Part shown: piece by piece, positions 1 to 10,151 of the stretch | Numbering within the stretch: the stretch's first letter is position 1 | Layout of the letters: the number at the start of each line of letters is the position of its first letter | From: Gammaproteobacteria bacterium | GTDB lineage: Bacteria; Pseudomonadota; Gammaproteobacteria; J044 | Direction of reading: 5' to 3' | DNA: 10,151 nt | Assembly: GCA_026995955.1 (NCBI GenBank) | Contig: JALWNJ010000243.1 | Span: forward strand, 4,259 to 14,409 | Program-made: the position numbers and the translations under genes | The notes under the pieces: model-generated | Database searches by the model: none | What the model was told of the DNA's origin: nothing | The model's input: only the letters and a program-made list of their open reading frames with translations

Positions 1-1166
1 GTGTCCAGGGGCAGCCCTTCTCGGCCATGCTGCGCAGCGACTGGACGCCGAGCGTGGACCGGGAGTCCATGGCCGAGGTGCATTTCACGCAGGACAGCAG
101 CATCGTCGATCTGATGCAGGATATGGTCTACCGGGAGCACTGGCAGTGCGACCCCGCAGCGGCGCCGGGCTCCGGCAACGATTGTGGCCGCGAAGTCCTG
201 CGCATCGACTACAGCGGTCTGACCACGCCGGCGCCCGTGAACGGAATCATCGACTACGAGACCCACATCCAGCCCCTGTGGGAGAAAGTCCGTCCTGACC
301 TGCTGGGCCAGGGGCAGGATGGAAGCTGCGTGGACTGTCACGACAGCAATCAGGCGGCTGCCGGGCTGGATCTGCGCAATACCCTGTATGGCAATGGCCG
401 CATGGTGTCGTATCAGGAGCTGCTGCTGGGCGATCCGGTACTCGATCCCGTGACCGGCCAGCCGCAGATTCGCGAGCGAGACGGCGAGCTGGAGGTAGTG
501 CGCGAACCGGCGCTGGTGGAGGTCGGGTCCTCGGCACAGAGTGCCCGTACCACCCGCCTGATGGCCAAACTCTACGAGCAGCCATTGCGCAGTGATTACG
601 ATCCGTCCACGGCCAGCGTGAATCATGCCGGCATGCTCAATCCGTCGGAATTGCGTCTGCTGGCAGAATGGATCGATCTAGGGGCCCAGTACCGCAACGA
701 CCCCTACGAAGGGGATCTCGATGGGGACGGGGTGCTGGAGCTTTCCGAGGTGTGGGGCGGAACCCAGGGCCTGGACGAAGCCGTCTTTGCCTCCAGTGTC
801 CATCCTGTCCTGATGCAGCGCTGTGCAGCTTGCCACAATGCTGTCGGCAGCACGCCGCAGGGCTTTGCCGATCTGGGCAACATCGCCGGAATCGGCAATA
901 ACTTCGTGCTTACCGGAAGTGTCGAAGGCGACTACAACATTACCGTAGGCATGGTACACGATGTCTGCAGTCGCGCAGCGAACGAACTGCTGGCGCGACC
1001 CGTCTCGACCGAGACGGATGCGCCGCCGCATCCGCGAATCGATCGCAACGATCCTCCCACACCTTCGGATCCTTCCGACGACAGCCCGGTTCTGACACCG
1101 GCTGAAGCCGATTACCAGACAATCCTGAACTGGATCGATGCGGCAGCCGTGGCCAATGGGTGTTGA
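1..1166 (+). CDS. HzsA-related diheme c-type cytochrome, 5'-truncated
   Basis: This is the C-terminal part of a larger exported cytochrome. The reading frame is open from base 3, the first ATG (27) has no convincing ribosome site, and the visible N-terminus lacks a signal peptide, so the real start lies upstream of the window. Two CXXCH haem c motifs are seen: CVDCH at 327-341 and CAACH at 822-836. Each is followed by a cytochrome-like helix ending, EWIDLGAQY near 667-693 and NWIDAAA near 1128-1148. Between them, 714-749 encodes DLDGDGVLELSE, which fits a calcium-binding EF-hand loop. The text around the first haem (paired GDPVLDPVTG and REPALVEVG, then MLNPSELRLLAEW) resembles proteins databases call HzsA-related, after the hydrazine synthase alpha subunit. 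That is resemblance only; hydrazine chemistry is not implied. The likely role is electron transfer in the periplasm or at the cell surface. The stop codon lies in the ribosome site of the next gene. The diheme call is firm, the family name less so. Confidence 0.82.
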   Translation, partial: VQGQPFSAMLRSDWTPSVDRESMAEVHFTQDSSIVDLMQDMVYREHWQCDPAAAPGSGNDCGREVLRIDYSGLTTPAPVNGIIDYETHIQPLWEKVRPDLLGQGQDGSCVDCHDSNQAAAGLDLRNTLYGNGRMVSYQELLLGDPVLDPVTGQPQIRERDGELEVVREPALVEVGSSAQSARTTRLMAKLYEQPLRSDYDPSTASVNHAGMLNPSELRLLAEWIDLGAQYRNDPYEGDLDGDGVLELSEVWGGTQGLDEAVFASSVHPVLMQRCAACHNAVGSTPQGFADLGNIAGIGNNFVLTGSVEGDYNITVGMVHDVCSRAANELLARPVSTETDAPPHPRIDRNDPPTPSDPSDDSPVLTPAEADYQTILNWIDAAAVANGC

Positions 1167-1172
1167 GGGAGG
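1165..1172 (+). promoter_or_regulatory. Shine-Dalgarno GAGGGAGG deciding the cytochrome lipoprotein start
   Basis: GAGGGAGG lies 11 bases before the ATG at 1184 and overlaps the stop codon of the upstream gene (TGA, 1164-1166). It lies downstream of the alternative GTG at 1160, so it cannot serve that start. Starting at 1184 also gives a normal short lipoprotein signal peptide. Confidence 0.6.
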
Positions 1173-1183
1173 CGGTCTGGCGA

Positions 1184-1705
1184 ATGCGTGATTCCTCCCG
1201 TCGCCGGCTTGGGGTCGGCCCGCTGCTTTTGCCCGTGCTCGCCGTGCTGGTCGCCTGCAAGGAGGTAGTCCAGTCACCGCTGACGGAAAGCGGTCAGGCC
1301 CTGTGCCTGTCCGACTATGCCACCTGCATCGATCCCATCCTGCAGGGCAACATCCAGGGCGCAACCTGCGCCGCGAGCAGCTGTCATGCCACGGGCGGCA
1401 ACGGTGGGGGATTCAAGCTCAATGTCGGGGCCGCGCCGGGCAGCCCGGAGATGCTGGCCAACTATTATTCCGCCAAGGGATTTGCCAATCTCAACGACCC
1501 GGATCAGAGCAAACTGTTGCTGGAGCCGTTGCAGGGCAGCTTTGGTATCACCGGAAGCCACGGCGGGGGGACCATCTTCCGTTCCACGACGGATCCGTGT
1601 TTCCAGACCATTCGCAGCTGGATCGCAAACCGGGTCGATGATCCGGCCAGCCCGGGATGTGGCAGTTGTACACCGGTTGCGGATCTTTCCGTCTGCGGCC
1701 GCTGA
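1184..1705 (+). CDS. Probable outer-membrane lipoprotein cytochrome with CX4CH motif
   Basis: 173 residues from the ATG at 1184; a GTG at 1160 would add eight residues but is not served by the ribosome site. The N-terminus has an arginine-rich n-region, a hydrophobic core and the lipobox LVAC, with the lipidated Cys at residue 25. The +2 residue is Lys, so by the usual sorting rule the protein goes to the outer membrane. Residues 62-68 read CAASSCH (1367-1387), a CX4CH spacing known to bind haem c in some tetrahaem cytochromes c3, in place of the usual CXXCH. The flanking text (CIDPILQGN before, HATGGNGGGFKL after, then SWI near the C-terminus) looks like a cytochrome c domain. Several further cysteines, including GCGSC near the C-terminus, may form disulfides. 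It probably partners the upstream diheme cytochrome. Haem attachment is inferred; a disulfide-bonded, haem-free fold is the alternative. Confidence 0.72.
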   Translation: MRDSSRRRLGVGPLLLPVLAVLVACKEVVQSPLTESGQALCLSDYATCIDPILQGNIQGATCAASSCHATGGNGGGFKLNVGAAPGSPEMLANYYSAKGFANLNDPDQSKLLLEPLQGSFGITGSHGGGTIFRSTTDPCFQTIRSWIANRVDDPASPGCGSCTPVADLSVCGR

Positions 1706-1714
1706 GGGGCAGGG

Positions 1715-2461
1715 ATGCGCTATCCGGCGTCAATGCTTTTGCTGGTGCTGTGGCTGTCGATGGCTGGCGTCCTGCTGGCCGGCGAGAAGCCGGTGCTGAG
1801 GTTGCAGGTGATGGATCCTTACCTCGACCTGCACACCGGGCCGGGGCGTGGCTACCCCGCATTCCGGATCGCCGAGCGGGGCGAGTGGATTACGGTGCTC
1901 AAACGCCGTACCGACTGGTTCAGGGTGCGACTGGACGATGGCACGGAAGGCTGGGTTCCCCGCGCCATGCTGGAGAGGACGCTGACCGCCGAGGGCAAGC
2001 GGCGAAGCTTCCGTGATGTGCTGCTCGACGACTATCTCAACGAGCGTTTTCTGGTCGGTCTGCAAGGCGGCCGGTACGATGCCGATGCCGAGGTCTCGGT
2101 GCTGCTGGGTTGGCGCAGCAGCAGGAACCTTCGCCTCGAAGTCGCCTATCGGCATGTGTCCGGCACACTGTCGAGCACGCGCATTGCAGAGGCCGGCATC
2201 GTTTCGCTTCCGTTCGTGGACTGGCGGCTGCGCCCCAGCTTCTCGCTCATGGTCGGGCAGTTCGAAAACCGTCCTTCTCCCACACTGATCAATGCCAGGC
2301 CCGTGGATGCCGTGGTGGCCAGCTACGGCTTTGGAGGGGAGTACTATCTGACGCGCCGATTCGTGGTGCGCGCCGACTGGCGCCGCTACACGGCGCTGAC
2401 CAGTGTCGAGGAAAATCGCCACTACGATAGCTGGCTTCTTGGTGTCATGGCCTTTTTCTGA
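1715..2461 (+). CDS. Exported SH3b domain fused to a C-terminal outer-membrane barrel
   Basis: 248 residues. Residues 1-22 form a signal peptide ending VLLA. Residues about 30-86 are a bacterial SH3 (SH3b) domain, with the typical LDLHTGPGRGYPAF opening and a WFRVRLDDGTEGWVP ending. Such domains commonly bind peptidoglycan or peptide ligands. From about residue 110 to the end the chain alternates polar and hydrophobic residues in short strands (FLVGLQGG, LRLEVAYRHVSG, ASYGFGGEYYL, RFVVRADWRRY) and ends in AFF, the aromatic C-terminus expected of Bam-inserted barrels. The barrel part is short, about 140 residues, enough for roughly eight strands. The layout suggests a barrel in the outer membrane carrying a periplasmic SH3b module that could touch the cell wall. 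The ATG at 1715 follows GAGGGG, which overlaps the upstream stop codon. Ten bases separate it from the next barrel gene, so the two may form a pair, as GltA and GltB do in Myxococcus; that parallel is inference. Confidence 0.82.
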   Translation: MRYPASMLLLVLWLSMAGVLLAGEKPVLRLQVMDPYLDLHTGPGRGYPAFRIAERGEWITVLKRRTDWFRVRLDDGTEGWVPRAMLERTLTAEGKRRSFRDVLLDDYLNERFLVGLQGGRYDADAEVSVLLGWRSSRNLRLEVAYRHVSGTLSSTRIAEAGIVSLPFVDWRLRPSFSLMVGQFENRPSPTLINARPVDAVVASYGFGGEYYLTRRFVVRADWRRYTALTSVEENRHYDSWLLGVMAFF

Positions 2462-2472
2462 GGGAACTCCGG

Positions 2473-3123
2473 ATGAAACGAACACTGCTGCGGCCGCTGA
2501 CCCTGTTCCTCCTGATGTCGTGGGCATTCTCTGCCCAATGCCAGGACGGGCTGCCCGAAGCACGGGATGAACCGGCCATCGAGCCGGCACTCGATCGGCC
2601 GGAGATCGTGATACCGCGCATCGATACCGAAGACTTCGAAATCGGGCTCTATGGGGGCGTGCTCAGTATCGAGGACTTCGGTGCGCATCCGGTAACCGGC
2701 GTGCGCGCGGCCTTTCATGTCACGGAGGATCTCTTTGTCGAGGGCAGCTATGGACGCAGCAGTTTCGACGATGCGGCCTTTCGACGGCTGGGGCTGCCGC
2801 TGTTTCCGTCCGATCAGCCCACCCAGGACTACCTCTACTACGCGGTCGATGTCGGCTACAACCTGTTTCCGGGCGAGGCCTTTCTCGGCAGTGGGCGGGC
2901 CTGGACCAGCGCCGTGTTCGTCGTGGGTGGTGCCGGCAATACCCGCTATGCCGGCGAGGACAAGTTCACCGTCAATTTCGGGTTCGGTCTCCGCATGCTG
3001 CCTACCGACTGGCTGGCCCTGCGCATCGATGCGCGTGACTACCTGTTCGAATCCGATTTGCTGGGCGTCAACAAGAGAACCCACAACCTGGAGCTGGGCC
3101 TGGGGCTTGGCGTCTTTTTCTGA
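2473..3123 (+). CDS. Outer membrane beta-barrel domain protein (TIGR04565-like)
   Basis: 216 residues with an N-terminal signal peptide of about 21-23 residues ending near AFSAQC; the Cys is not in a good lipobox. A low-complexity acidic and proline-rich linker follows to residue 50. The rest is barrel. Recognisable blocks are FEIGLYGGVLSIEDFG (55-70), FHVTEDLFVEGSYG (81-94), YYAVDVGYNLFPGEAFLG (122-139), GGAGNTRYAGEDKFTVNFG (152-170), LALRIDARDYLFESDLLG (181-198) and THNLELGLGLGVFF (203-216), with a terminal Phe. From memory this order matches the family NCBI names OMP_myx_plus (TIGR04565), found mainly in myxobacteria and some gammaproteobacteria, often beside TPR proteins. It probably forms the outer-membrane part of a trans-envelope complex. 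The start at 2473 follows GAGGGAA, which overlaps the upstream stop codon. Family assignment is fairly sure; molecular function is not known. Confidence 0.87.
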   Translation: MKRTLLRPLTLFLLMSWAFSAQCQDGLPEARDEPAIEPALDRPEIVIPRIDTEDFEIGLYGGVLSIEDFGAHPVTGVRAAFHVTEDLFVEGSYGRSSFDDAAFRRLGLPLFPSDQPTQDYLYYAVDVGYNLFPGEAFLGSGRAWTSAVFVVGGAGNTRYAGEDKFTVNFGFGLRMLPTDWLALRIDARDYLFESDLLGVNKRTHNLELGLGLGVFF

Positions 3124-3129
3124 GGAGAG
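3122..3129 (+). promoter_or_regulatory. Shine-Dalgarno GAGGAGAG fixing the TlpA-like start
   Basis: GAGGAGAG begins within the TGA stop of the barrel gene (3121-3123) and lies 10 bases before the ATG at 3140. It selects this start over far-upstream in-frame starts inside the barrel gene, and the resulting N-terminus is a signal peptide. Confidence 0.6.
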
Positions 3130-3139
3130 CGCACGAACA

Positions 3140-3619
3140 ATGAAACTGCACATGCGAATGATGTTCATGCTGGCTCTGCTGCTGTCGGCTGCCCCGCTCC
3201 TGGCCGAGCCGGCACCGGATTTCGTGCTGCCCTCCGATGAGGGCAATGTCCGCCTCTCCGAGCTGCGCGGCAAGGTGGTGATGCTCAATTTCTGGGCTAC
3301 TTGGTGTGGCCCCTGCCGGCATGAAATGCCGCCGCTTCAGGCGCTTCAGGAACGGCATGCCTCACAGGGCTTCGTCCTGCTGGGGATCAATGTCGATCGT
3401 CGATTCGACAAGGCTCGGGCAATGGCCGCGCGGCTCGGTGTGCGCTATCCGCTCCTGCACGACGGCGGCAAGAAGGTCAGTGGTCTGTATGGGGTGGACA
3501 ACATGCCCTATACCGTGCTCATTGACCGGGACGGGAACATACGCTATCGCCATCGCGGCTATGTCCCCGGGGTTATCGACACCTATGAGCGCGAGGTCAG
3601 GGGGCTGCTGGTCGAATGA
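3140..3619 (+). CDS. Periplasmic TlpA-like thioredoxin-fold oxidoreductase
   Basis: 159 residues. The open frame runs upstream into the barrel gene, but the ATG at 3140 has a good ribosome site and yields a clean signal peptide (residues 1-22, ending PLLA), so the longer version is rejected. There is no lipobox or second membrane segment, so the mature protein should be soluble in the periplasm. The domain follows the AhpC/TSA-Redoxin-TlpA pattern: APDFVLP (25-31), KVVMLNFWATWCGPC (45-59) with active-site Cys56 and Cys59 (3305-3316), the NVD segment (84-86), and the cis-proline loop NMPYT (121-125) before VLIDRDG. The role is thiol-disulfide exchange, probably reducing, as in cytochrome c maturation or rescue of exported cysteines. 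Its likely clients are local: the c-type cytochromes upstream and the Cys-ending DUF4266 protein, whose gene overlaps its last four bases (ATGA). TlpA/DUF4266/DUF3570 neighbours recur in other proteobacteria. The client assignment is inference. Confidence 0.93.
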   Translation: MKLHMRMMFMLALLLSAAPLLAEPAPDFVLPSDEGNVRLSELRGKVVMLNFWATWCGPCRHEMPPLQALQERHASQGFVLLGINVDRRFDKARAMAARLGVRYPLLHDGGKKVSGLYGVDNMPYTVLIDRDGNIRYRHRGYVPGVIDTYEREVRGLLVE

Positions 3620-3834
3620 GGCGATTGTCGATTCTGCTCGTGCTGTTGCTGGCCGGCTGCTCGGGGTGGCCCAGGCCCTGGGTGGCGCCCTACGAGCGCG
3701 AACTGCTGGCCGATCCGGTCATGGACCCCGCCAGGGACCCCCTGGTTGCGGGCTTCCGCAGTCATGTCGAGGAGGTGCGTGAGGGCGCCCAGGGTGCGGG
3801 CATGACCGAGGGAGGGGGGTGTGGCTGCAACTGA
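3616..3834 (+). CDS. DUF4266 mini-lipoprotein ending in GGGCGCN
   Basis: 72 residues. The signal peptide ends in the lipobox LAGC, with the lipidated Cys at residue 15; Ser at +2 predicts outer-membrane placement. The mature part is only 58 residues and shows the marks of DUF4266: VAPYERELLADPVMDP (23-38), DPLVAGFRSHVEEVREGA (41-58), and a glycine-rich tail closing with GGGCGCN (66-72). The start ATG overlaps the TGA of the thioredoxin gene as ATGA, which suggests translational coupling. The last 14 bases overlap the start of the DUF3570 gene. No function is established for the family that I know of. The closing Cys-Gly-Cys could bind a metal, form a disulfide handled by the adjacent TlpA-like protein, or be a site of modification; these are inferences. 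The family call is secure despite the short length. Confidence 0.93.
   Translation: MRRLSILLVLLLAGCSGWPRPWVAPYERELLADPVMDPARDPLVAGFRSHVEEVREGAQGAGMTEGGGCGCN
3808..3815 (+). promoter_or_regulatory. Shine-Dalgarno GAGGGAGG supporting a GTG start
   Basis: GAGGGAGG ends five bases before the GTG at 3821 and lies wholly within the DUF4266 coding sequence. It favours GTG 3821 over later in-frame GTG 3845 or TTG 3848. It is the same octamer as at 1165-1172. Confidence 0.5.
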
Positions 3835-4942
3835 TTGCAGATCGGTGTTGCTCCGGCATGGGCTGCTGCCAGTACTCCTCGCCGTGTTGCCGCTGCGCGC
3901 GGCCGTGCTCCCGGAAGACCGTATCGATGCGGCCTTGCATTCCTATGATGGGGGTGGCGTCGAGGTCAAGGGGCCGGCCCTGCTGCTGCGCAAGACCGTT
4001 GCCGATCGCGTCAGCATCGAGGGCGGCTATTACAGCGATCTGGTGAGTGCCGCCTCGCCCGATGTGCTGGCCACGGCCAGCCCCTTCACGGACCGGCGCG
4101 ACGAATGGCGTGTCTCTGCCCGCTATCTGCATGGCGACAGCATCCTGCATCTCGGCTATACCCGCAGCACCGAAAACGACTACGATGCCCGCACCTGGAA
4201 TTTCGGTGTCAGCCATGAGTTCTTCGGCGGCATGTCGACCCTGAGCCTCGATTACACCCGTGGCGCCAATGTGGTGCGTCGTTCCGACAACGACTTCCGG
4301 GCTACCAACGACCGCTCCGCCTATCGTCTGGGGCTGGCACAGGTACTCTCGCCCTCCACCCTGCTGTCGATCTCCTACGAGGGCATTCTCGATGAAGGGT
4401 ATCTCTCGAACCCCTATCGGTCGGTACGGATTCTCGGCATCTTTGCCGGGCCGGAACGCTATCCCGGGACACGGACCAGCAATGCGATCGCCCTGCGCCT
4501 GCAGCAGTACTTCGATGTTCTTGGCGGAGGAGCGCTGAGCGCCGGCTATCGTCATTTCAGCGATACCTGGCAGATCAGCGCCGGTGACTGGGAGCTGGGC
4601 TGGCGCCAGCACCTGTACGACCGCTGGATGCTGGGCCTGAACTACCGGCAATACGGCCAGACGGCCGCAGTGTTTTACAGCGACGACTTCGATCGCGAAT
4701 ACACCTACATGGCGCGGGACAAGGAACTCAGCACCTTCAGCAGTCGCCGGCTGGGGCTGACCGTGAGCTACGATCTCTACCGGCGTCTGGCACTTGGGCT
4801 GGAGAACGGCCGCGTGGTGCTGGCTGCCGACTGGATACGATACGACTACGCGGATTATACCGACGCCTCGAAACCCGGTAACGACGAGCCCTACGGTTTC
4901 GATGCCTGGCTGTTGCAGCTCAACTTTACTTCCGGATTCTGA
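3821..4942 (+). CDS. DUF3570 outer-membrane beta-barrel protein
   Basis: 373 residues from a GTG start; a signal peptide of roughly 28 residues ends near LPLRAA. The mature N-terminus, VLPEDRIDAALHSYDGGGVEV, is a recognisable DUF3570 opening. The family's barrel text follows: YYSDLVSAASPDVLATASPF (43-92 region), YLHGDSILHLGYTRSTENDY, FFGGMSTLSLDYTRG, DEGYLSNPYRSVRIL, YPGTRTSNAIALR, YRHFSDTWQI, and ARDKELSTFSS near the C-terminus. Repeated alternating strands and the terminal LNFTSGF support an outer-membrane barrel. At 373 residues it is close to the length I expect for the family. Its position directly after DUF4266 and the TlpA-like protein is the recurrent arrangement. The flavin transferase gene (ApbE-type) that often accompanies this trio elsewhere is not in the window. 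The molecular role is unknown; a surface pore or a scaffold for the lipoprotein and cytochromes are guesses. Confidence 0.92.
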   Translation: MAATDCRSVLLRHGLLPVLLAVLPLRAAVLPEDRIDAALHSYDGGGVEVKGPALLLRKTVADRVSIEGGYYSDLVSAASPDVLATASPFTDRRDEWRVSARYLHGDSILHLGYTRSTENDYDARTWNFGVSHEFFGGMSTLSLDYTRGANVVRRSDNDFRATNDRSAYRLGLAQVLSPSTLLSISYEGILDEGYLSNPYRSVRILGIFAGPERYPGTRTSNAIALRLQQYFDVLGGGALSAGYRHFSDTWQISAGDWELGWRQHLYDRWMLGLNYRQYGQTAAVFYSDDFDREYTYMARDKELSTFSSRRLGLTVSYDLYRRLALGLENGRVVLAADWIRYDYADYTDASKPGNDEPYGFDAWLLQLNFTSGF

Positions 4943-4944
4943 TC

Positions 4945-5454
4945 ATGAAGACCTTCATTTTCTGCCTGTTGTCGTTTGTGGCCGTCTCCGTTCAGGCGGA
5001 GGACGAGCTGCGGACACTGGATGAGCGTACCCAGGCCCTCAAGGGCGAGGTCCAGGCCCTGGGGCGCGAGCTGTTCCAGCTGGAGGAGGAGTTGCTGCAC
5101 CCCTCCAGTACCCAGGTGTCCGTTTTCCTGTCGATGGATGTGGGCACGCTGTTCCGCCTCGACAGTGTCAGCCTGAAGATCGACGGCAAGCCGGTGACGC
5201 ATTACCTCTATACCCGTCGCGAGCTGGACGCGCTGCGGCGGGGTGGCGTCCAGCGCCTGTACACCGGCAACCTGAAGCAGGGCGAGCACGAACTGGTGGC
5301 GGTCATGGTCGGCAAGGGGCCGCACGACCGGGACTACCGGCGAGCCGCGAGCCTGAAATTCAGCAAATCGGTTGGGCCGCGTTATCTGGAGCTGCGCATC
5401 GTCGACAGCGAGTCGCGCCTGCAGCCGGAGTTTTCGCTGCGTGAGTGGGAGTGA
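4945..5454 (+). CDS. Unrecognised exported protein with coiled coil and beta-rich domain
   Basis: 169 residues. Residues 1-18 form a signal peptide (cleavage after VQA). Residues about 19-51 are a charged amphipathic helix with heptad-like spacing (LRTLDERTQALKGEV, LGRELFQLEEELL), probably a short coiled coil. From residue 56 the chain is beta-rich (STQVSVFLSMDVG, LDSVSLKIDGKPV, GEHELVAVMVGKG, YLELRIVD), suggesting an immunoglobulin- or PEGA-like sandwich. The pattern of a carried ligand arm (VTHYLYTRRELDALRRG, 84-100) between strands stands out. I do not recognise a named family. There is no DNA-binding domain and a signal peptide is present, so a regulator role is unlikely. The ATG is two bases after the DUF3570 stop with only a weak ribosome site, and its stop overlaps the next ATG (ATG at 5454), so translation is probably coupled. 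By position it is likely a periplasmic component of the same envelope complex. Confidence 0.8.
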   Translation: MKTFIFCLLSFVAVSVQAEDELRTLDERTQALKGEVQALGRELFQLEEELLHPSSTQVSVFLSMDVGTLFRLDSVSLKIDGKPVTHYLYTRRELDALRRGGVQRLYTGNLKQGEHELVAVMVGKGPHDRDYRRAASLKFSKSVGPRYLELRIVDSESRLQPEFSLREWE

Positions 5455-7340
5455 TGTCGTCCGCGGGGCGCATCGGTGGCATGCTGCTGGCAGCCCTGTG
5501 CTGCCTGCCGGCGCTGCCTGTGGCCGGCGAGTCTGCAAAGGCACCGGCTGAATCTGCGGCCCGGGTCGCCAATCTGTTCTATGGCGATGCCCTGTTTCAC
5601 TACTATCAGAACGACCCTTTCGGCACCATCGTCCGCATCCTTGCCTATGACAGCCAGGATCGCCTGGGCAGCGACCGGGCCGAGGCGCGGCTGCTGCTGG
5701 CCGGCACACGACTGGCCTGGGGACAGACAGCCGCCGCCGAGGCCGATTTCCGTCGCCTGCTGGATGCACACGCCCTCGACCGTGTGCGCAACCGTGCCTG
5801 GTTCCAGCTGGCCCGTATCGCCTATGCGCGGGACGAATTCCCGCGTGTGCTCCAGTCCCTTGCACACATCAATGCCGGTTGGGGCACAAGCGAGCAGCAG
5901 GGCGAACGACGGCTCCTGAAGGCCCTGGCCCTGCTCAAGTCCGGCAAGCTCGAACCGGCCAGGGAAACGCTGGCTCGGCATGGCGGGGCTTCGCTGATGC
6001 AGCACTACCTGTCCTACAACCTGGGGGTGCTCCTTGCCCGCAGTGGTCGGCTGGAGGAAGCGGTACAGGCCTGGGACGAAGCGGCGTTCGAGACACCGCG
6101 CGATGCCGAGCAGGCTGCACTGGACGACCTGGTGAACAGCGTTGCCGGCCATGCCCTGCTGCGTGCCGGCCGGGATCGTGCGGCGGCAACCCGTCTTGCG
6201 CGTGTGCGTGTGCAGGGACCCTATTCCGACAAGGCCCTGCTGAGCTACGGACTGGCCCTGTTCCGCCAGGATCGGCTGGAGGAAGCCATTGGCGTCTGGC
6301 AGACACTGGTGGCGCGTGACCGTGTCTCGCCCGCGGTTCTGGAGGCGCGACTGGCCATACCCCATGCCCTGGCCCGACTGGGCGCCCTGGGTCAGGCTGC
6401 CGAGGCCTATCAGGCGGCCATTGCCCACTTCGACCAGAGGGAGCGCCAGTTGACCGCTCTGCTGCGGAAAACCGACCAGGATGCCGAATTGCAGGGCTTG
6501 CTGAAGGCGCTGGCAGCGGGACAGGGGGAGGAAGGCGCAAGGGTTTATGCGCCCTGGCTGTACGATCTGTTCGCGGGCAATCTTTTTCAGGAGACCCTGC
6601 GCAATTATCGCGATCTGCAGATGTTGCGGCGGCAGTTGTTGCGCTGGCGGGATGCCGTGGAACCATTCCGTCTGATGCTGGCGGAGCGCAGGGCACGCTT
6701 CGAGTCCGTGTTGCCCCGTCTGCAGGCGTTTCGGCATCAGGCAGAAACGGGGCCCCTCGGGGCGCAGCTGTCGGCACTGCAGGACGAGCTCGATCGGGCA
6801 CGGCATGAGGATGACGGGGCGGCGTTTGCCGATGCCGACACGCGTCGCCGGTTGCAGCGTCTGGCATCCATCCGCAGCCGTATTGCCCGCCTCCCCGAAG
6901 GTCCGCAACGCGAGGCCCTGGCGCGTAAGGCCCGGGTGCTGGATGGCCTGATCCACTGGGAATTGCAGCAGGCCCTGCCACGGCGGGCCTGGTCGATCGA
7001 GAAATCGCTGCGTCAGGTCCGTGGCGATCTGCGTGGGCTCGAACACGGGCTTTCCGGGGTAGATGCGCTTGTAAAACGGGCTCGGGCGGGCTTCGAGGGT
7101 TTTGCCCGGCGCATCGAAAGGGTGGAACAACGCATTCCGGCGCAGCTGCGCGCCGTCGAATCCCTGCTGGAAGCGCATGAGCAGGTATTGCGCCGGGAGA
7201 TGCAGCGTCGTCTCCTTGCCCAGCTGCAGCGCCTCGCCCTGTATCGTACCCAGGCCCGCTATGCCCTGGCGCGGTTGCACGACAAGGCAGTGAGCGAAAC
7301 GGACGATACGCCCGCCGCCCTGCGGGAGGAGGCCAGATGA
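5454..7340 (+). CDS. Exported TPR protein with C-terminal coiled-coil region
   Basis: 628 residues from the ATG at 5454, whose A is the last base of the upstream stop (TGATG). An in-frame GTG at 5445 would add three residues and an ATG at 5481 would remove nine; the choice does not alter the signal peptide core (LLAALCCLPALPVAG). Residues about 40-330 are helical repeats with TPR character, such as AAAEADFRRLLDAHA, YNLGVLLARSGRLEEAVQAW (188-207) and YGLALFRQDRLEEAIGVW (265-282). From about 385 to 612 the protein is long charged helices rich in Arg, Leu and Glu (LRRQLLRWRD, RRRLQRLASIRSRIARL, ESLLEAHEQVLRREMQRRLL), probably coiled coil. There is no lipobox, so it should be soluble periplasmic. 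Its stop overlaps the start of the next TPR gene by four bases (ATGA). The likely role is a periplasmic scaffold. A relation to Glt/Nfs TPR proteins is suggested by context, not shown by sequence. Confidence 0.84.
   Translation: MSSAGRIGGMLLAALCCLPALPVAGESAKAPAESAARVANLFYGDALFHYYQNDPFGTIVRILAYDSQDRLGSDRAEARLLLAGTRLAWGQTAAAEADFRRLLDAHALDRVRNRAWFQLARIAYARDEFPRVLQSLAHINAGWGTSEQQGERRLLKALALLKSGKLEPARETLARHGGASLMQHYLSYNLGVLLARSGRLEEAVQAWDEAAFETPRDAEQAALDDLVNSVAGHALLRAGRDRAAATRLARVRVQGPYSDKALLSYGLALFRQDRLEEAIGVWQTLVARDRVSPAVLEARLAIPHALARLGALGQAAEAYQAAIAHFDQRERQLTALLRKTDQDAELQGLLKALAAGQGEEGARVYAPWLYDLFAGNLFQETLRNYRDLQMLRRQLLRWRDAVEPFRLMLAERRARFESVLPRLQAFRHQAETGPLGAQLSALQDELDRARHEDDGAAFADADTRRRLQRLASIRSRIARLPEGPQREALARKARVLDGLIHWELQQALPRRAWSIEKSLRQVRGDLRGLEHGLSGVDALVKRARAGFEGFARRIERVEQRIPAQLRAVESLLEAHEQVLRREMQRRLLAQLQRLALYRTQARYALARLHDKAVSETDDTPAALREEAR
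7324..7332 (+). promoter_or_regulatory. Shine-Dalgarno GGGAGGAGG for the large TPR lipoprotein
   Basis: GGGAGGAGG lies inside the end of the upstream TPR gene, four bases before ATG 7337 and seven before ATG 7340. The adjacent ATGATG means either codon could start the protein, changing its length by one residue. Confidence 0.6.
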
Positions 7341-10114
7341 TGCGGCCTTTGTTTGTATCGGTGTTTCTGCTGGCGTTGGTCGCTTGCAGTCATCGCTACG
7401 ATCCCGGGCCGCGCATCGCCGACCTCGTGGTTACGCCGGACATCGACCGCGAGAAACCCCTGGACGCGGATACCGTGGCCGCCATCCAGCGCTATCAGGA
7501 CTACCTCGCCACCAATGATCGTTCCGACAACCGTGCCGAAGCCCTGCGTCGCGTCGCGGACCTCGAGCTCAGGTTTCTGTCCGAGCGCGAGGCCGGGCTG
7601 GCCGAGGGGCAGGCACCCGCGGGGGAGGTCAGCGCAGAACAGGTGGCTCGGCTCTACCGCAAGGTACTGGAGGCGTATCCGGATTTTGCCCGCAACGATC
7701 AGGTGATGTACCAGCTTGCCCATGCCCGCGACATGGCCGGCGACAGCGAGGCGACGCTAGCGGTGCTCGACGAGATCGTGCGGCGCTTTCCGGATTCGCG
7801 TCATCTCGACGAGGTCCATTTTCGGCGTGGCGAAATCCATTTCGTGGCCCGGCGTTATGCCGAGGCGGAACGCGCCTATGGTTGGGTCCTGGCCCTGGGC
7901 GCGAAATCTCCTTTCTATGCCCATGCCCGATACAAGCGCGGCTGGAGTCGGTTCAAGCTGCTCGATTATCCTGGTGCGCTGACCGATTTCGACCGTCTGA
8001 TTCTGGAGCATTTCGCTTCCGACGGCGAGTTCGATCTGCGTGCCCTGTCGCGGGCCGATCGCGAAATGGCCGAGGACACCCTGCGGGTGATGGCCCTGTC
8101 GTTCAGCTACAGCGGTGGGCGCAAGCCGCTGGTGCAGTTCTTCGCCACGCATCCGCAGCGGGGCTACGAGGATCGGCTCTATGCCGTGCTCGGGAAGTGG
8201 TATCTCGACAAGGAGCGCTACACCGAGGCAGCCGAGACCTTTGCCCAGTATGCCGACCTGCATCCCCTGGACAGTCGCGCACCGGCCTTCGATAGCCAGG
8301 CCATCGAGGCGTATCAGGCGGGGGGCTTTCCGAGCCAGGTGCTCAGGGCCAAGCAGGACTTCGTCGAGGCCTACCGGCTCGATGGCCCTTACTGGCAGGC
8401 GCGTGATCCGCAACGGTCGACGCAGGTCATTGCCCTGCTCAAGCGTCACATGACCGATCTTGCCCGCCATTTCCATGCCCTGGCCCAGAAGGGCGGGGAG
8501 GATGCGGACTACGCCGCAGCGGTCCATTGGTACCAGCGTTTCCTGGCGTCCTTTCCCGATGCGCCGGAAAGCCCGGAAATGCGCTACAGGCTGGGTGAAC
8601 TCCATTACGATCATGGGCAACGCGCGAAGGCCGTTGCCGAATGGGAGCGGGTGGCCTATGCATCGGGTGAAAACGCGCTGGCGGCGAGGGCGGGTTACAG
8701 TGCCCTGCGGGTGCTGACCGAGCTGGTGACACAGAGCAGCGGCACGGATCAGGCCCAGTGGCGTGACTGCCGCATCGAGAGCGCCCTGCGTTTCGTGCGT
8801 GCCTTTCCGCAACACGAGGGGCGGGCAGCTGCCTGGGTCACGGCGGCGCGCGAACTGCTGGCGCGAGGTCGTGCGGCGGAGGCAGTCCGCGAGGCGCGAG
8901 GCGTCATCGAGACTTACCCCGAACTGGCCCCCGAACTGAAGAAATCGGCACTGCTGACACTGGCACACGGGAGTTTCGACATCGGAGACCATGCCACGGC
9001 CGAGCGGGCCTATGAGCGGCTGCTCGCCGCCGCCACCCTCTCTTCCGGGGAGCGCAAGGCCTTGCGTGACCGACTGGCGGCGGCCATCTACAAGCAGGGT
9101 GAAGCAGCGCTCGGACAGGGTGACAGCGCGGCGGCCGCCGCGCTGTTCGTGCGGGCCGCCGAGCGCGTGCCCGAGAGTGCCATCGCCGCCACGGCAGAGT
9201 TCGATGCCGCCGCGCTGTACATCGGGCTGCGCGACTGGGACCGAGCCGGCCGGGTGCTGGAATCCTTCCGCCGACGGCATCCGGACAGCCCCTTGGCCAC
9301 GGAGGCCAGGAAGAAACTGGCCGTTGTGTATCTGGAACAGGGGCGTCTGCCCGAGGCCGCTGCGCTGTTCTCGGCGCTTTCGGCGACTGCGTCCGATCCC
9401 GCCTATCGTCGGGCCGTGACCCTGCAGGCAGCGGAACTCTATGTCCGTAGCGGGAATCTGCCCAGGGCCAATGCCCTGCTGGCGCGGTTCGTAAAGGAGA
9501 ATCCCAGCCCGACGGAGCCGGCCGTGGAGGCCATGCAGCAGCTGGCAGACAACCACCGCAAGCTCGGCAACGGGAATGCACGCCGCAAGTGGCTGAGGCG
9601 CATCATCGCGGCCGATGCCGCTGGTGGCACGGCCCGCACGCGGCAGCTGGCCGCGCGGGCCAGTCTTGAGCTGGCCGAGGCCGGTCTGCCCGCCTACCGG
9701 GCGATTCGTCTGGTGCGACCGCTCAAGCGCAATCTGAAACGCAAGAAGGCTGCGCTCGAGCGCCTGCTCAAGGCGTTCGGCAAGGCGGCAGACTATGGCA
9801 TTGCCGAAGTGACCACTGCTGCCACCTATCGCGTGGCTGAGCTGTATCACGACTTCGGCAAGGCGCTGATGGCCTCCGAACGGCCACGCGGCCTCGATGA
9901 AGAGGCGCTGGAGGAATACGAGCTGATGCTGGAGGAGGAGGCCATTCCATTCGAGGAAAAGGCCATCGAAACGCACGAAATCAATGCCGCTCGCGTGACC
10001 GACGGTATCTACGACGACTGGGTCAGGCGCAGCATGAAACAGCTGGCCGAACTGCTGCCGGCCCGCTATGGCAAGGAGGAACGGGTTCATGCCGTGCTCG
10101 AGCATGTGGAGTAG
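7337..10114 (+). CDS. Large TPR lipoprotein, GltD/NfsD-like
   Basis: 925 residues. The signal peptide ends in the lipobox LVAC with the lipidated Cys at residue 17 and Ser at +2, so outer-membrane sorting is predicted. Most of the chain is TPR-type helical repeat. Clear units include residues 102-151, YKRGWSRFKLLDYPGALTDF (199-218), LGKWYLDKERYTEAAETFAQ (285-304), YRLGELHYDHGQRAKAVAEW (417-436), the 550-660 region and VVYLEQGRLPEAAALFSAL (663-681). Residues 795-812 are very basic (RPLKRNLKRKKAALERL). A distinctive acidic C-terminal block follows (858-913, bases 9908-10075) with LEEEAIPFEEKAIETHEIN, DGIYDDWVRRSM and LLPARYGK. From memory, similar endings occur in large TPR proteins of Glt/Nfs-like clusters. 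It may span from the outer membrane into the periplasm as a scaffold for motor or barrel proteins. The coding frame overlaps both neighbours. TPR and lipoprotein calls are sure; the GltD/NfsD link is tentative. Confidence 0.88.
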   Translation: MMRPLFVSVFLLALVACSHRYDPGPRIADLVVTPDIDREKPLDADTVAAIQRYQDYLATNDRSDNRAEALRRVADLELRFLSEREAGLAEGQAPAGEVSAEQVARLYRKVLEAYPDFARNDQVMYQLAHARDMAGDSEATLAVLDEIVRRFPDSRHLDEVHFRRGEIHFVARRYAEAERAYGWVLALGAKSPFYAHARYKRGWSRFKLLDYPGALTDFDRLILEHFASDGEFDLRALSRADREMAEDTLRVMALSFSYSGGRKPLVQFFATHPQRGYEDRLYAVLGKWYLDKERYTEAAETFAQYADLHPLDSRAPAFDSQAIEAYQAGGFPSQVLRAKQDFVEAYRLDGPYWQARDPQRSTQVIALLKRHMTDLARHFHALAQKGGEDADYAAAVHWYQRFLASFPDAPESPEMRYRLGELHYDHGQRAKAVAEWERVAYASGENALAARAGYSALRVLTELVTQSSGTDQAQWRDCRIESALRFVRAFPQHEGRAAAWVTAARELLARGRAAEAVREARGVIETYPELAPELKKSALLTLAHGSFDIGDHATAERAYERLLAAATLSSGERKALRDRLAAAIYKQGEAALGQGDSAAAAALFVRAAERVPESAIAATAEFDAAALYIGLRDWDRAGRVLESFRRRHPDSPLATEARKKLAVVYLEQGRLPEAAALFSALSATASDPAYRRAVTLQAAELYVRSGNLPRANALLARFVKENPSPTEPAVEAMQQLADNHRKLGNGNARRKWLRRIIAADAAGGTARTRQLAARASLELAEAGLPAYRAIRLVRPLKRNLKRKKAALERLLKAFGKAADYGIAEVTTAATYRVAELYHDFGKALMASERPRGLDEEALEEYELMLEEEAIPFEEKAIETHEINAARVTDGIYDDWVRRSMKQLAELLPARYGKEERVHAVLEHVE
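10073..10079 (+). promoter_or_regulatory. Shine-Dalgarno AAGGAGG of the last, partial gene
   Basis: AAGGAGG, the closest match to the ideal anti-16S sequence in the window, lies nine bases before ATG 10089, inside the TPR lipoprotein gene. It argues that a new gene starts before the upstream stop, and favours 10089 over the in-frame ATG at 10104. Confidence 0.65.
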
Positions 10115-10151
10115 GGGGCTGCTGGCCGGGGTCGCGCTGCTGCTCGCCGCC
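10089..10151 (+). CDS. Start of a further exported protein, 3'-truncated
   Basis: Only 21 residues are visible, MPCSSMWSRGLLAGVALLLAA, running off the window end. They read as a signal peptide with one arginine and a hydrophobic core (LLAGVALLLAA); whether a lipobox follows cannot be seen. The ATG is supported by AAGGAGG nine bases upstream, and the gene overlaps the end of the large TPR gene by 26 bases in another frame. By context it should be another envelope component, plausibly a further TPR or lipoprotein of the same machine, but nothing of the mature protein is present to test this. Confidence 0.65.
   Translation, partial: MPCSSMWSRGLLAGVALLLAA

What the first reader, a model, noticed from the sequence alone, without database searches (positions are those of the whole stretch)
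1..10151. Glt/Nfs-like trans-envelope gene set fused with a cytochrome and thioredoxin module
One apparent transcription unit encodes two c-type cytochromes, two or three outer-membrane barrels, outer-membrane lipoproteins, a TlpA-like thioredoxin, DUF4266, DUF3570 and two very long TPR proteins. The barrel plus giant-TPR combination is characteristic of the Glt and Nfs machines of Myxococcus, known to have relatives in some gammaproteobacteria. Coupling it to haem proteins suggests a redox-related envelope machine rather than gliding or spore-coat assembly. The combination is seen; the shared function is inferred.
Basis: partly seen in the sequence, partly recalled or inferred. Interest (0 to 1): 0.78.

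Follow-up and report, generated by a model that had tools for sequence, protein, structure and literature searches.

The report
Motor-type envelope machine with redox module
This stretch of a bacterial genome carries the scaffold genes of a proton-driven envelope machine related to the one Myxococcus uses to glide, in one gene row with haem, flavin and thiol proteins that recur with it across many proteobacteria, which gives a concrete clue to what this machine may do in bacteria not known to glide.

Summary
The window is one tightly packed + strand gene row: HzsA-like multihaem protein (CYT), CX4CH haem lipoprotein, SH3+barrel, TIGR04565 barrel, TlpA, DUF4266, DUF3570 barrel, a 169-aa protein (P169) and two TPR proteins (T631, T925). 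ApbE lies upstream. The contig ends inside the next gene's signal peptide. In relatives T925 is followed by AglR/Q/S-type motor genes and a GltG-like AgmX/PglI-tail protein (named loci 52 of 54, unnamed 72 of 88): the gammaproteobacterial Glt core of Luciano 2011. The redox set is conserved: of 15 unnamed loci with DUF3570 beside the core and enough upstream sequence, all have CYT and both other barrels, 14 TlpA and DUF4266. This DUF3570 subfamily occurs in 55 of 369 class genomes, all 55 with T925. Ten such loci lack motor genes beside them; all ten genomes carry them elsewhere, as Nfs borrows the Agl motor. Not shown: motor genes in the window's own fragmentary genome, direct homology to Myxococcus GltC/D, flavinylation, electron flow, function. 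A new variant of a known kind; no paper found here reports the link.

The parts
1..1166 (+). CYT: C-terminal part of HzsA-like multihaem protein with a lipobox; CXXCH at 327-341 and 822-836; N-terminal part (with a third CXXCH) upstream on the contig beyond a 10-N gap
1160..1705 (+). LIPO: 181-aa lipoprotein with CX4CH haem motif (CAASSCH, 1367-1387), lipobox LVAC
   Evidence: motif in 16 of 16 orthologues examined
1715..2461 (+). SH3B: bacterial SH3 domain plus outer-membrane barrel-like C-terminus
   Evidence: SH3_3 38.6 bits; barrel part weak here (13.9 bits, below cut-off); two relatives hit TIGR04565 at 33 and 41 bits, below cut-off 60
2473..3123 (+). OMPM: outer-membrane beta-barrel of family TIGR04565 (OMP_myx_plus)
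   Evidence: 148.7 bits against cut-off 60; 4 of 4 relatives tested over cut-off
3140..3619 (+). TlpA-like periplasmic thioredoxin, WCGPC
   Evidence: WCxxC in 34 of 34 type-A proteins
3616..3834 (+). DUF4266 lipoprotein ending GGGCGCN
   Evidence: 70.2 bits; C-terminal CxC in 34 of 34
3821..4942 (+). DUF3570, modelled as a 16-strand outer-membrane barrel; ApbE-type motif D-L-V-S-A-A-S at 4037-4057
4945..5454 (+). P169: conserved core protein of unknown family; model has a long N-terminal helix and a transthyretin/Ig-like sandwich
5445..7340 (+). T631: TPR protein, GltC-like by place and length only
7337..10114 (+). T925: TPR lipoprotein, GltD-like by place and length only
10104..10151 (+). 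start of the next gene (MWSRGLLAGVALLLAA, signal-peptide-like; in-frame ATGs also at 10068 and 10089), overlapping the end of T925, where relatives have the GltE-like lipoprotein

Best explanation
The window holds the outer half of a Glt-core machine specialised for redox work. Shown by gene association: P169, the two TPR proteins and, in relatives, a GltE-like lipoprotein, an AglR/Q/S motor and a GltG-like TonB-type arm form a conserved core, and a haem-flavin-thiol set (CYT, SH3-barrel, TIGR04565 barrel, TlpA, DUF4266, DUF3570, in part LIPO and ApbE) is genetically tied to it. Inferred: the proton-driven motor in the inner membrane acts through the GltG arm and the TPR scaffold on an outer-membrane complex made of the barrels and the haem lipoproteins. 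TlpA and the CxC tail of DUF4266 carry electrons or keep the parts reduced, flavin on DUF3570 (attached by ApbE) and the haems of CYT/LIPO pass electrons across or at the outer membrane, and motor force positions, gates or assembles this complex. The order and direction of electron flow and the substrate are not known.
For: Gene order conserved across families. DUF3570-type loci with at least 9.9 kb upstream, unnamed n=15: CYT 15, SH3B 15, OMPM 15, TlpA 14, DUF4266 14, LIPO 7, ApbE 8. The DUF3570 subfamily (best hit per genome 275 bits or more; all other DUF3570 at most 177) occurs in 55 of 369 genomes from 29 families, all 55 with T925, which 88 of 369 have. It lies within 6 kb of T925 on the same strand in 27 of 55 and divergent at 12.7-15.6 kb in 10 of 55. 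Haem count and LIPO go together: 15 full-length CYT with LIPO have three haem motifs, 16 without have two, 31 of 31. Motor genes. Ten loci without adjacent motor, all ten genomes with AglR at 342 bits or more and GltG at 253 or more elsewhere. CxxC, CxC and relaxed flavinylation motif kept in 34 of 34, 34 of 34 and 34 of 35. ApbE on the window's contig: 266 bits.
Against: The core often stands without these genes beside it: 46 of 104 unnamed loci have no TlpA, ApbE or DUF3570 close upstream on its strand (some of these have the module divergent), and 33 of 88 T925 genomes lack the DUF3570 subfamily. The strict flavinylation motif [ST]GA[ST] is in only 12 of 35 type-A DUF3570 and the window has A for G. 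ApbE lies upstream within 11 kb in 9 of 24 type-A loci. 16 of 88 unnamed loci lack the motor genes downstream. No motor or GltG gene in the window's own genome, and the same-genus genome G001 lacks T925 and this DUF3570. Module genes also stand without the TPR genes in the fetched stretch (L025, L033, L034), though those genomes have a core elsewhere. Association shows no physical contact and no electron transfer.
Confidence: 0.52

Rival explanations
1. The Glt core handles a surface polymer, lipid or protein, as Glt and Nfs do, and the TlpA, DUF4266 and ApbE genes serve only to mature its outer-membrane parts (thiol state, haem or flavin attachment). The cofactors are structural or protective, not a current path.
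For: DUF3570 model resembles many export barrels (FadL, PelB, AlgE, BcsC; TM about 0.4-0.5), though any barrel might; Nfs and Glt act with polymers (PMC3858216, passages); strict flavinylation motif mostly lost.
Against: Two or three haem motifs in CYT plus one in LIPO, conserved, and the second haem protein X864 in divergent loci are more than maturation needs.
Confidence: 0.22
2. Two separate systems share an operon: an ApbE/DUF3570/DUF4266/thioredoxin electron-transfer pathway of the Meheust type and a Glt core, without a joint mechanism.
For: Generic DUF3570/DUF4266/TlpA/ApbE clusters without the core exist (L027, L032, L038, L041); generic DUF3570 in 52 of 369 genomes, 21 of them without T925.
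Against: The window's DUF3570 subfamily did not occur without T925 (55 of 55), also where it lies elsewhere in the genome; conserved order and overlaps.
Confidence: 0.18
3. A gliding or spore-coat machine proper.
For: Core and motor of the same type.
Against: CglB adhesin model gives no hit over cut-off in the five genomes searched; type-A hosts include taxa not known for gliding (recalled); the redox words searched for do not occur in the main text of the Glt paper.
Confidence: 0.03
4. The cytochrome is a hydrazine synthase alpha subunit and the locus serves nitrogen metabolism.
For: CYT hits PF18582 HZS_alpha at 76 bits in the window's contig and 68.6 bits in L031, and PDB 5c2v over residues 522-585.
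Against: Only the middle domain matches; NCBIfam hydrazine_alpha 61.6 bits (L031) against a cut-off of 800. HzsB/C were not searched for.
Confidence: 0.02

Closest known systems
Standalone Glt core complex of gammaproteobacteria (Luciano et al. 2011, PMC3169522)
   Same: TPR proteins of GltC/D/E type, one ExbB-type and two ExbD-type motor proteins, a GltG-type TonB arm, one extra gene, all in one region; function unknown
   Different: Here the core carries a haem-flavin-thiol module and barrels; the words cytochrome, thioredoxin, redox, ApbE, flavin and heme do not occur in that paper's main text; its figure S1 was not held
Nfs spore-coat machine of Myxococcus (Wartel et al. 2013, PMC3858216)
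   Same: An alternative outer assembly that uses the Agl motor in trans; ten type-A loci likewise lack a motor beside them
   Different: Redox genes instead of polymer handling; motor sharing here is inferred from genome content only
ApbE/DUF3570/DUF4266/thioredoxin clusters (Meheust et al. 2021, PMC8238504)
   Same: DUF3570 as ApbE substrate, DUF4266 with C-terminal CxC, thioredoxin partner
   Different: Distinct DUF3570 subfamily with relaxed motif, in this sample always with T925; 'tetratricopeptide', 'gliding', 'ExbB' and 'hydrazine' absent from that main text
Tol-Pal and TonB-ExbBD systems
   Same: Proton-driven inner-membrane motor acting on the outer membrane through a TonB-like arm (recalled; PMC9389320 passages)
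   Different: TPR scaffold, two ExbD-type proteins, dedicated redox barrels

Membership tests
Glt core complex (Luciano group B) | AglR, AglQ, AglS motor genes beside the TPR genes | tested here: met
   In relatives: MotA_ExbB 99.5 bits, ExbD 50.8 and 56.0 bits in L031; 52 of 54 named and 72 of 88 unnamed loci. Not found in the window's own genome: best AglR-profile hit 92.7 bits, the level of the other ExbB/TolQ-type hits in the 15 genomes
Glt core complex (Luciano group B) | GltG with AgmX/PglI C-terminal domain | tested here: met
   In relatives: NF033768 65.6 and 75.1 bits against 40, 2 of 2 tested; 312-313 aa against 640 for GltG, no FHA match in that NCBIfam scan. Own genome: none
Glt core complex (Luciano group B) | GltE-type TPR lipoprotein | tested here: inconclusive
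   NF033758 GltE 41.9 and 49.8 bits, cut-off 225; PilW model scores 53.0 on one of them
Glt core complex (Luciano group B) | GltC and GltD homologues | not testable with these tools
   No Myxococcus protein could be fetched; lengths 631 and 925 aa against 673 and 1191 in Table 1 of PMC3169522
Glt core complex (Luciano group B) | clustered with one extra gene absent from Myxococcales | tested here: inconclusive
   P169 lies upstream of T925 in 74 of 89 unnamed loci with at least 4 kb upstream and would fit, but the paper's figure S1 was not held
Gliding machinery proper | CglB adhesin | tested here: not met
   No hit over cut-off in 5 genomes incl. the window's
ApbE-flavinylated DUF3570 | DUF3570 domain | tested here: met
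   110.9 bits, cut-off 25
ApbE-flavinylated DUF3570 | [S/T]GA[S/T] motif(s) | tested here: not met
   Window has DLVSAAS; strict motif in 12 of 35 type-A proteins, relaxed D..[ST].A[ST].D in 34 of 35. G to A gave about 50% flavinylation in a fumarate reductase (PMC12052999, passage)
ApbE-flavinylated DUF3570 | apbE, thioredoxin and DUF4266 in the cluster | tested here: met
   All present on the window's contig: ApbE 266.2 bits, AhpC-TSA and DUF4266
Hydrazine synthase alpha | full-length equivalog match | tested here: not met
   24 bits (window part) and 61.6 bits (L031) against 800

The most novel reading that the evidence does not exclude
A proton-driven, Tol/TonB-like motor mechanically drives or gates an outer-membrane electron-transfer complex made of a flavin-bearing barrel and multihaem surface lipoproteins; in some genomes this redox front end and another Glt-type front end plug into one shared motor. 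The standalone Glt core of proteobacteria would then be, in most of the genomes that have it (55 of 88 in this sample), part of an envelope redox machine.
Probability: 0.3. Interest if true: 0.87.

Novelty: new variant of a known kind. Interest (0 to 1): 0.67.

Why it matters
The function of the Glt core outside myxobacteria was left open when it was described in 2011. A DUF3570 subfamily found, in this sample, only in genomes with the core, plus conserved haem, thiol and barrel partners, ties the core to envelope redox chemistry and names hosts for a test: Aquabacterium sp. A7-Y and Rhizobacter sp. SG703 (named strains, taken to be cultured) carry CYT, LIPO, the barrels, TlpA, DUF4266, DUF3570 and the core with its motor in one stretch (L068, L125). 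If motor force and electron transfer are joined at the outer membrane, that would be a coupling not described in the papers seen here.

Full report
WHAT IS THERE. The window is contig C243, 4259-14409, of an 86% complete, 443-contig assembly, and ends with the contig. All ten genes lie on the + strand with gaps of -14 to +16 bases. Upstream on the contig are a GGDEF gene (PF00990 165 bits), ApbE (PF02424 266 bits) and the first part of the cytochrome, again nearly touching; a 10-N gap at contig 4249-4258 splits the cytochrome gene. The cytochrome, read with X over the gap, hits HZS_alpha PF18582 at 76 bits and a PD40 propeller repeat. That both sides of the gap belong together is supported by relatives with the same ApbE-CYT-LIPO-SH3B order (L157, L199, L224, L225). 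The last bases hold an ORF with ATGs at 10068, 10089 and 10104 (MWSRGLLAGVALLLAA) that overlaps the T925 end; in nine relatives looked at, the GltE-like ORF, from its first possible start, begins 19 to 196 bases before the T925 end. T631 at least was recovered on another contig at 90% identity (P0001), possibly from a close strain.

THE CORE. In the relatives first examined T925 is followed by a ~220-aa TPR lipoprotein, a MotA/TolQ/ExbB protein, two ExbD proteins and a ~312-aa protein whose C-terminus matches NF033768 AgmX/PglI at 65.6 and 75.1 bits (cut-off 40) and the GltG model partially. With profiles built from these, AglR, AglQ, AglS and GltG each occur downstream in 52 of 54 named loci (GltE-like in 47) and 72 of 88 unnamed loci (GltE-like in 74) with at least 4.5 kb there. 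P169 and T631 lie upstream in 74 and 79 of 89 unnamed loci with at least 4 kb. This gene set is that of the core complex which Luciano et al. 2011 (PMC3169522; passages seen) describe as clustered in non-deltaproteobacteria, of unknown function, with one extra gene; P169 may be that gene (inference). T925 matches occur in 88 of 369 genomes drawn from the class.

THE REDOX MODULE. I call a locus type A if DUF3570 lies within 5.5 kb upstream of T925 on its strand. Unnamed loci (100 fetched plus L003, L026, L028, L031; n=104): A 24, B (TlpA or ApbE only) 17, C (none found) 46, U (too little sequence) 17. Named loci (n=80): A 15, B 38, C 5, U 22. In type-A loci with at least 9.9 kb upstream, unnamed n=15: CYT 15, SH3B 15, OMPM 15, TlpA 14, DUF4266 14, ApbE 8, LIPO 7; named n=6: six each of CYT, SH3B, OMPM, TlpA and DUF4266, LIPO 4, ApbE 3. 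Thresholds and profiles are mine and were trained on part of these loci; the barrel OMPM was checked as TIGR04565 in 4 of 4 relatives (144-163 bits). Five unnamed loci counted outside type A show CYT on the opposite strand, the start of a divergent module.

GENOME-WIDE LINK. A profile of 35 DUF3570 proteins, 31 from loci with the core and four (L025, L033, L034, L035) from loci found through DUF4266 without T925 in the stretch, splits the hits in the 369 genomes in two: a subfamily whose best hit per genome scores 275 bits or more, and all others at 177 or less (split genes and a fragment left as they fall). The subfamily is in 55 genomes of 29 families; all 55 have T925, and none of the 281 genomes without T925 has it (Fisher p about 1e-42, which ignores kinship of the genomes). 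Other DUF3570 proteins are in 52 genomes, 31 with T925 and 21 without, so they too lean to T925 genomes. Places of the 55: 27 within 6 kb of T925 on the same strand, 10 divergent at 12.7-15.6 kb, one divergent at 5.8 kb, three at 6.7, 17 and 24 kb, 14 on another contig. On the T925 tree (FastTree, 101 rows) type A needs 12 changes, at least 7 forced by starred branches, against 21.5 after shuffling: clustered, but not one clade, so the coupling was gained or lost several times.

HAEM, THIOL AND FLAVIN SITES. LIPO keeps CX4CH in 16 of 16 orthologues. Among 31 full-length CYT proteins, all 15 with a LIPO neighbour have three CX2-3CH motifs and all 16 without have two (two partial CYT rows, L055 and L075, set aside; some rows are close kin): the third haem and LIPO seem to be gained and lost together. 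TlpA keeps WCxxC in 34 of 34 and DUF4266 a C-terminal CxC in 34 of 34. The ApbE motif in DUF3570 is relaxed: strict [ST]GA[ST] in 12 of 35, D..[ST].A[ST].D in 34 of 35; the window reads DLVSAAS. A 2025 review (PMC12052999, passage) reports about 50% flavinylation when this G is A in a fumarate reductase, so flavinylation here is possible, not shown. The DUF3570 model (mean pLDDT 90.4) is a barrel with 16 long strands; by strand parity the motif loop (residues 77-89, between strands 3 and 4) would face outward (inference). P169 is modelled as a long helix plus a beta sandwich (pLDDT 92).

MOTOR IN TRANS. Ten type-A unnamed loci have no motor genes within 5.2 kb after T925. All ten genomes carry AglR (342 bits or more) and GltG (253 or more) elsewhere; eight of them have a second T925 locus, all eight with motor genes beside it, while G057 and G193 show no second T925 match at the threshold used. 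M. xanthus Nfs likewise uses the Agl motor encoded elsewhere (PMC3858216, passages). In the window's genome no GltG and only a TolQ-level AglR hit were found; given the contig end this is open.

MECHANISM AND NOVELTY. Best reading: a proton-driven motor acts through a TonB-like arm and a TPR scaffold on an outer-membrane redox complex. The association is shown; contact, electron flow and substrate are not. Both halves are known apart; in the papers looked into here (main-text word searches; searches) I found no statement of the link. I therefore file it as a new variant of a known kind.

Noticed in passing
L110 913-6316, L114 763-6129; also other divergent loci: In divergent loci three further genes lie between the redox module and the core: a PSD2-like protein (below cut-off), a LamG-domain protein with two CXXCH motifs in most members and a protein with a Tat-like RRDF start in L110 and L114, without a Pfam hit; all three in 16 of 80 named and 10 of 100 unnamed loci.
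   Followed up: partly
window 1160-1705 and CYT: LIPO presence matches a third haem motif in CYT, 31 of 31: two subtypes of the module.
   Followed up: yes
L074 13421-13909, L051 13205-13687, L044 16169-16429: A small protein gene between the GltE-like gene and AglR in several loci; no Pfam hit for the L074 one.
   Followed up: no
window 2473-3123: The TIGR04565 (OMP_myx_plus) barrel family, by name tied to myxobacteria, occurs in the redox module; relation to GltA/B/H was not testable.
   Followed up: partly
contig C243 1-1449: A GGDEF protein (165 bits) heads the gene row before ApbE, so cyclic-di-GMP may bear on its use (inference).
   Followed up: partly
genome G001: The same-genus genome (96% complete, 7% contaminated) gave no T925, DUF4266 or DUF3570 match, so the locus is not fixed in the genus.
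   Followed up: partly
L042 5124-15038: Genome G038 has the full module with P169 and T631 but no T925 next to it, plus a second module (L033) and a core on another contig: the parts can be re-dealt.
   Followed up: no
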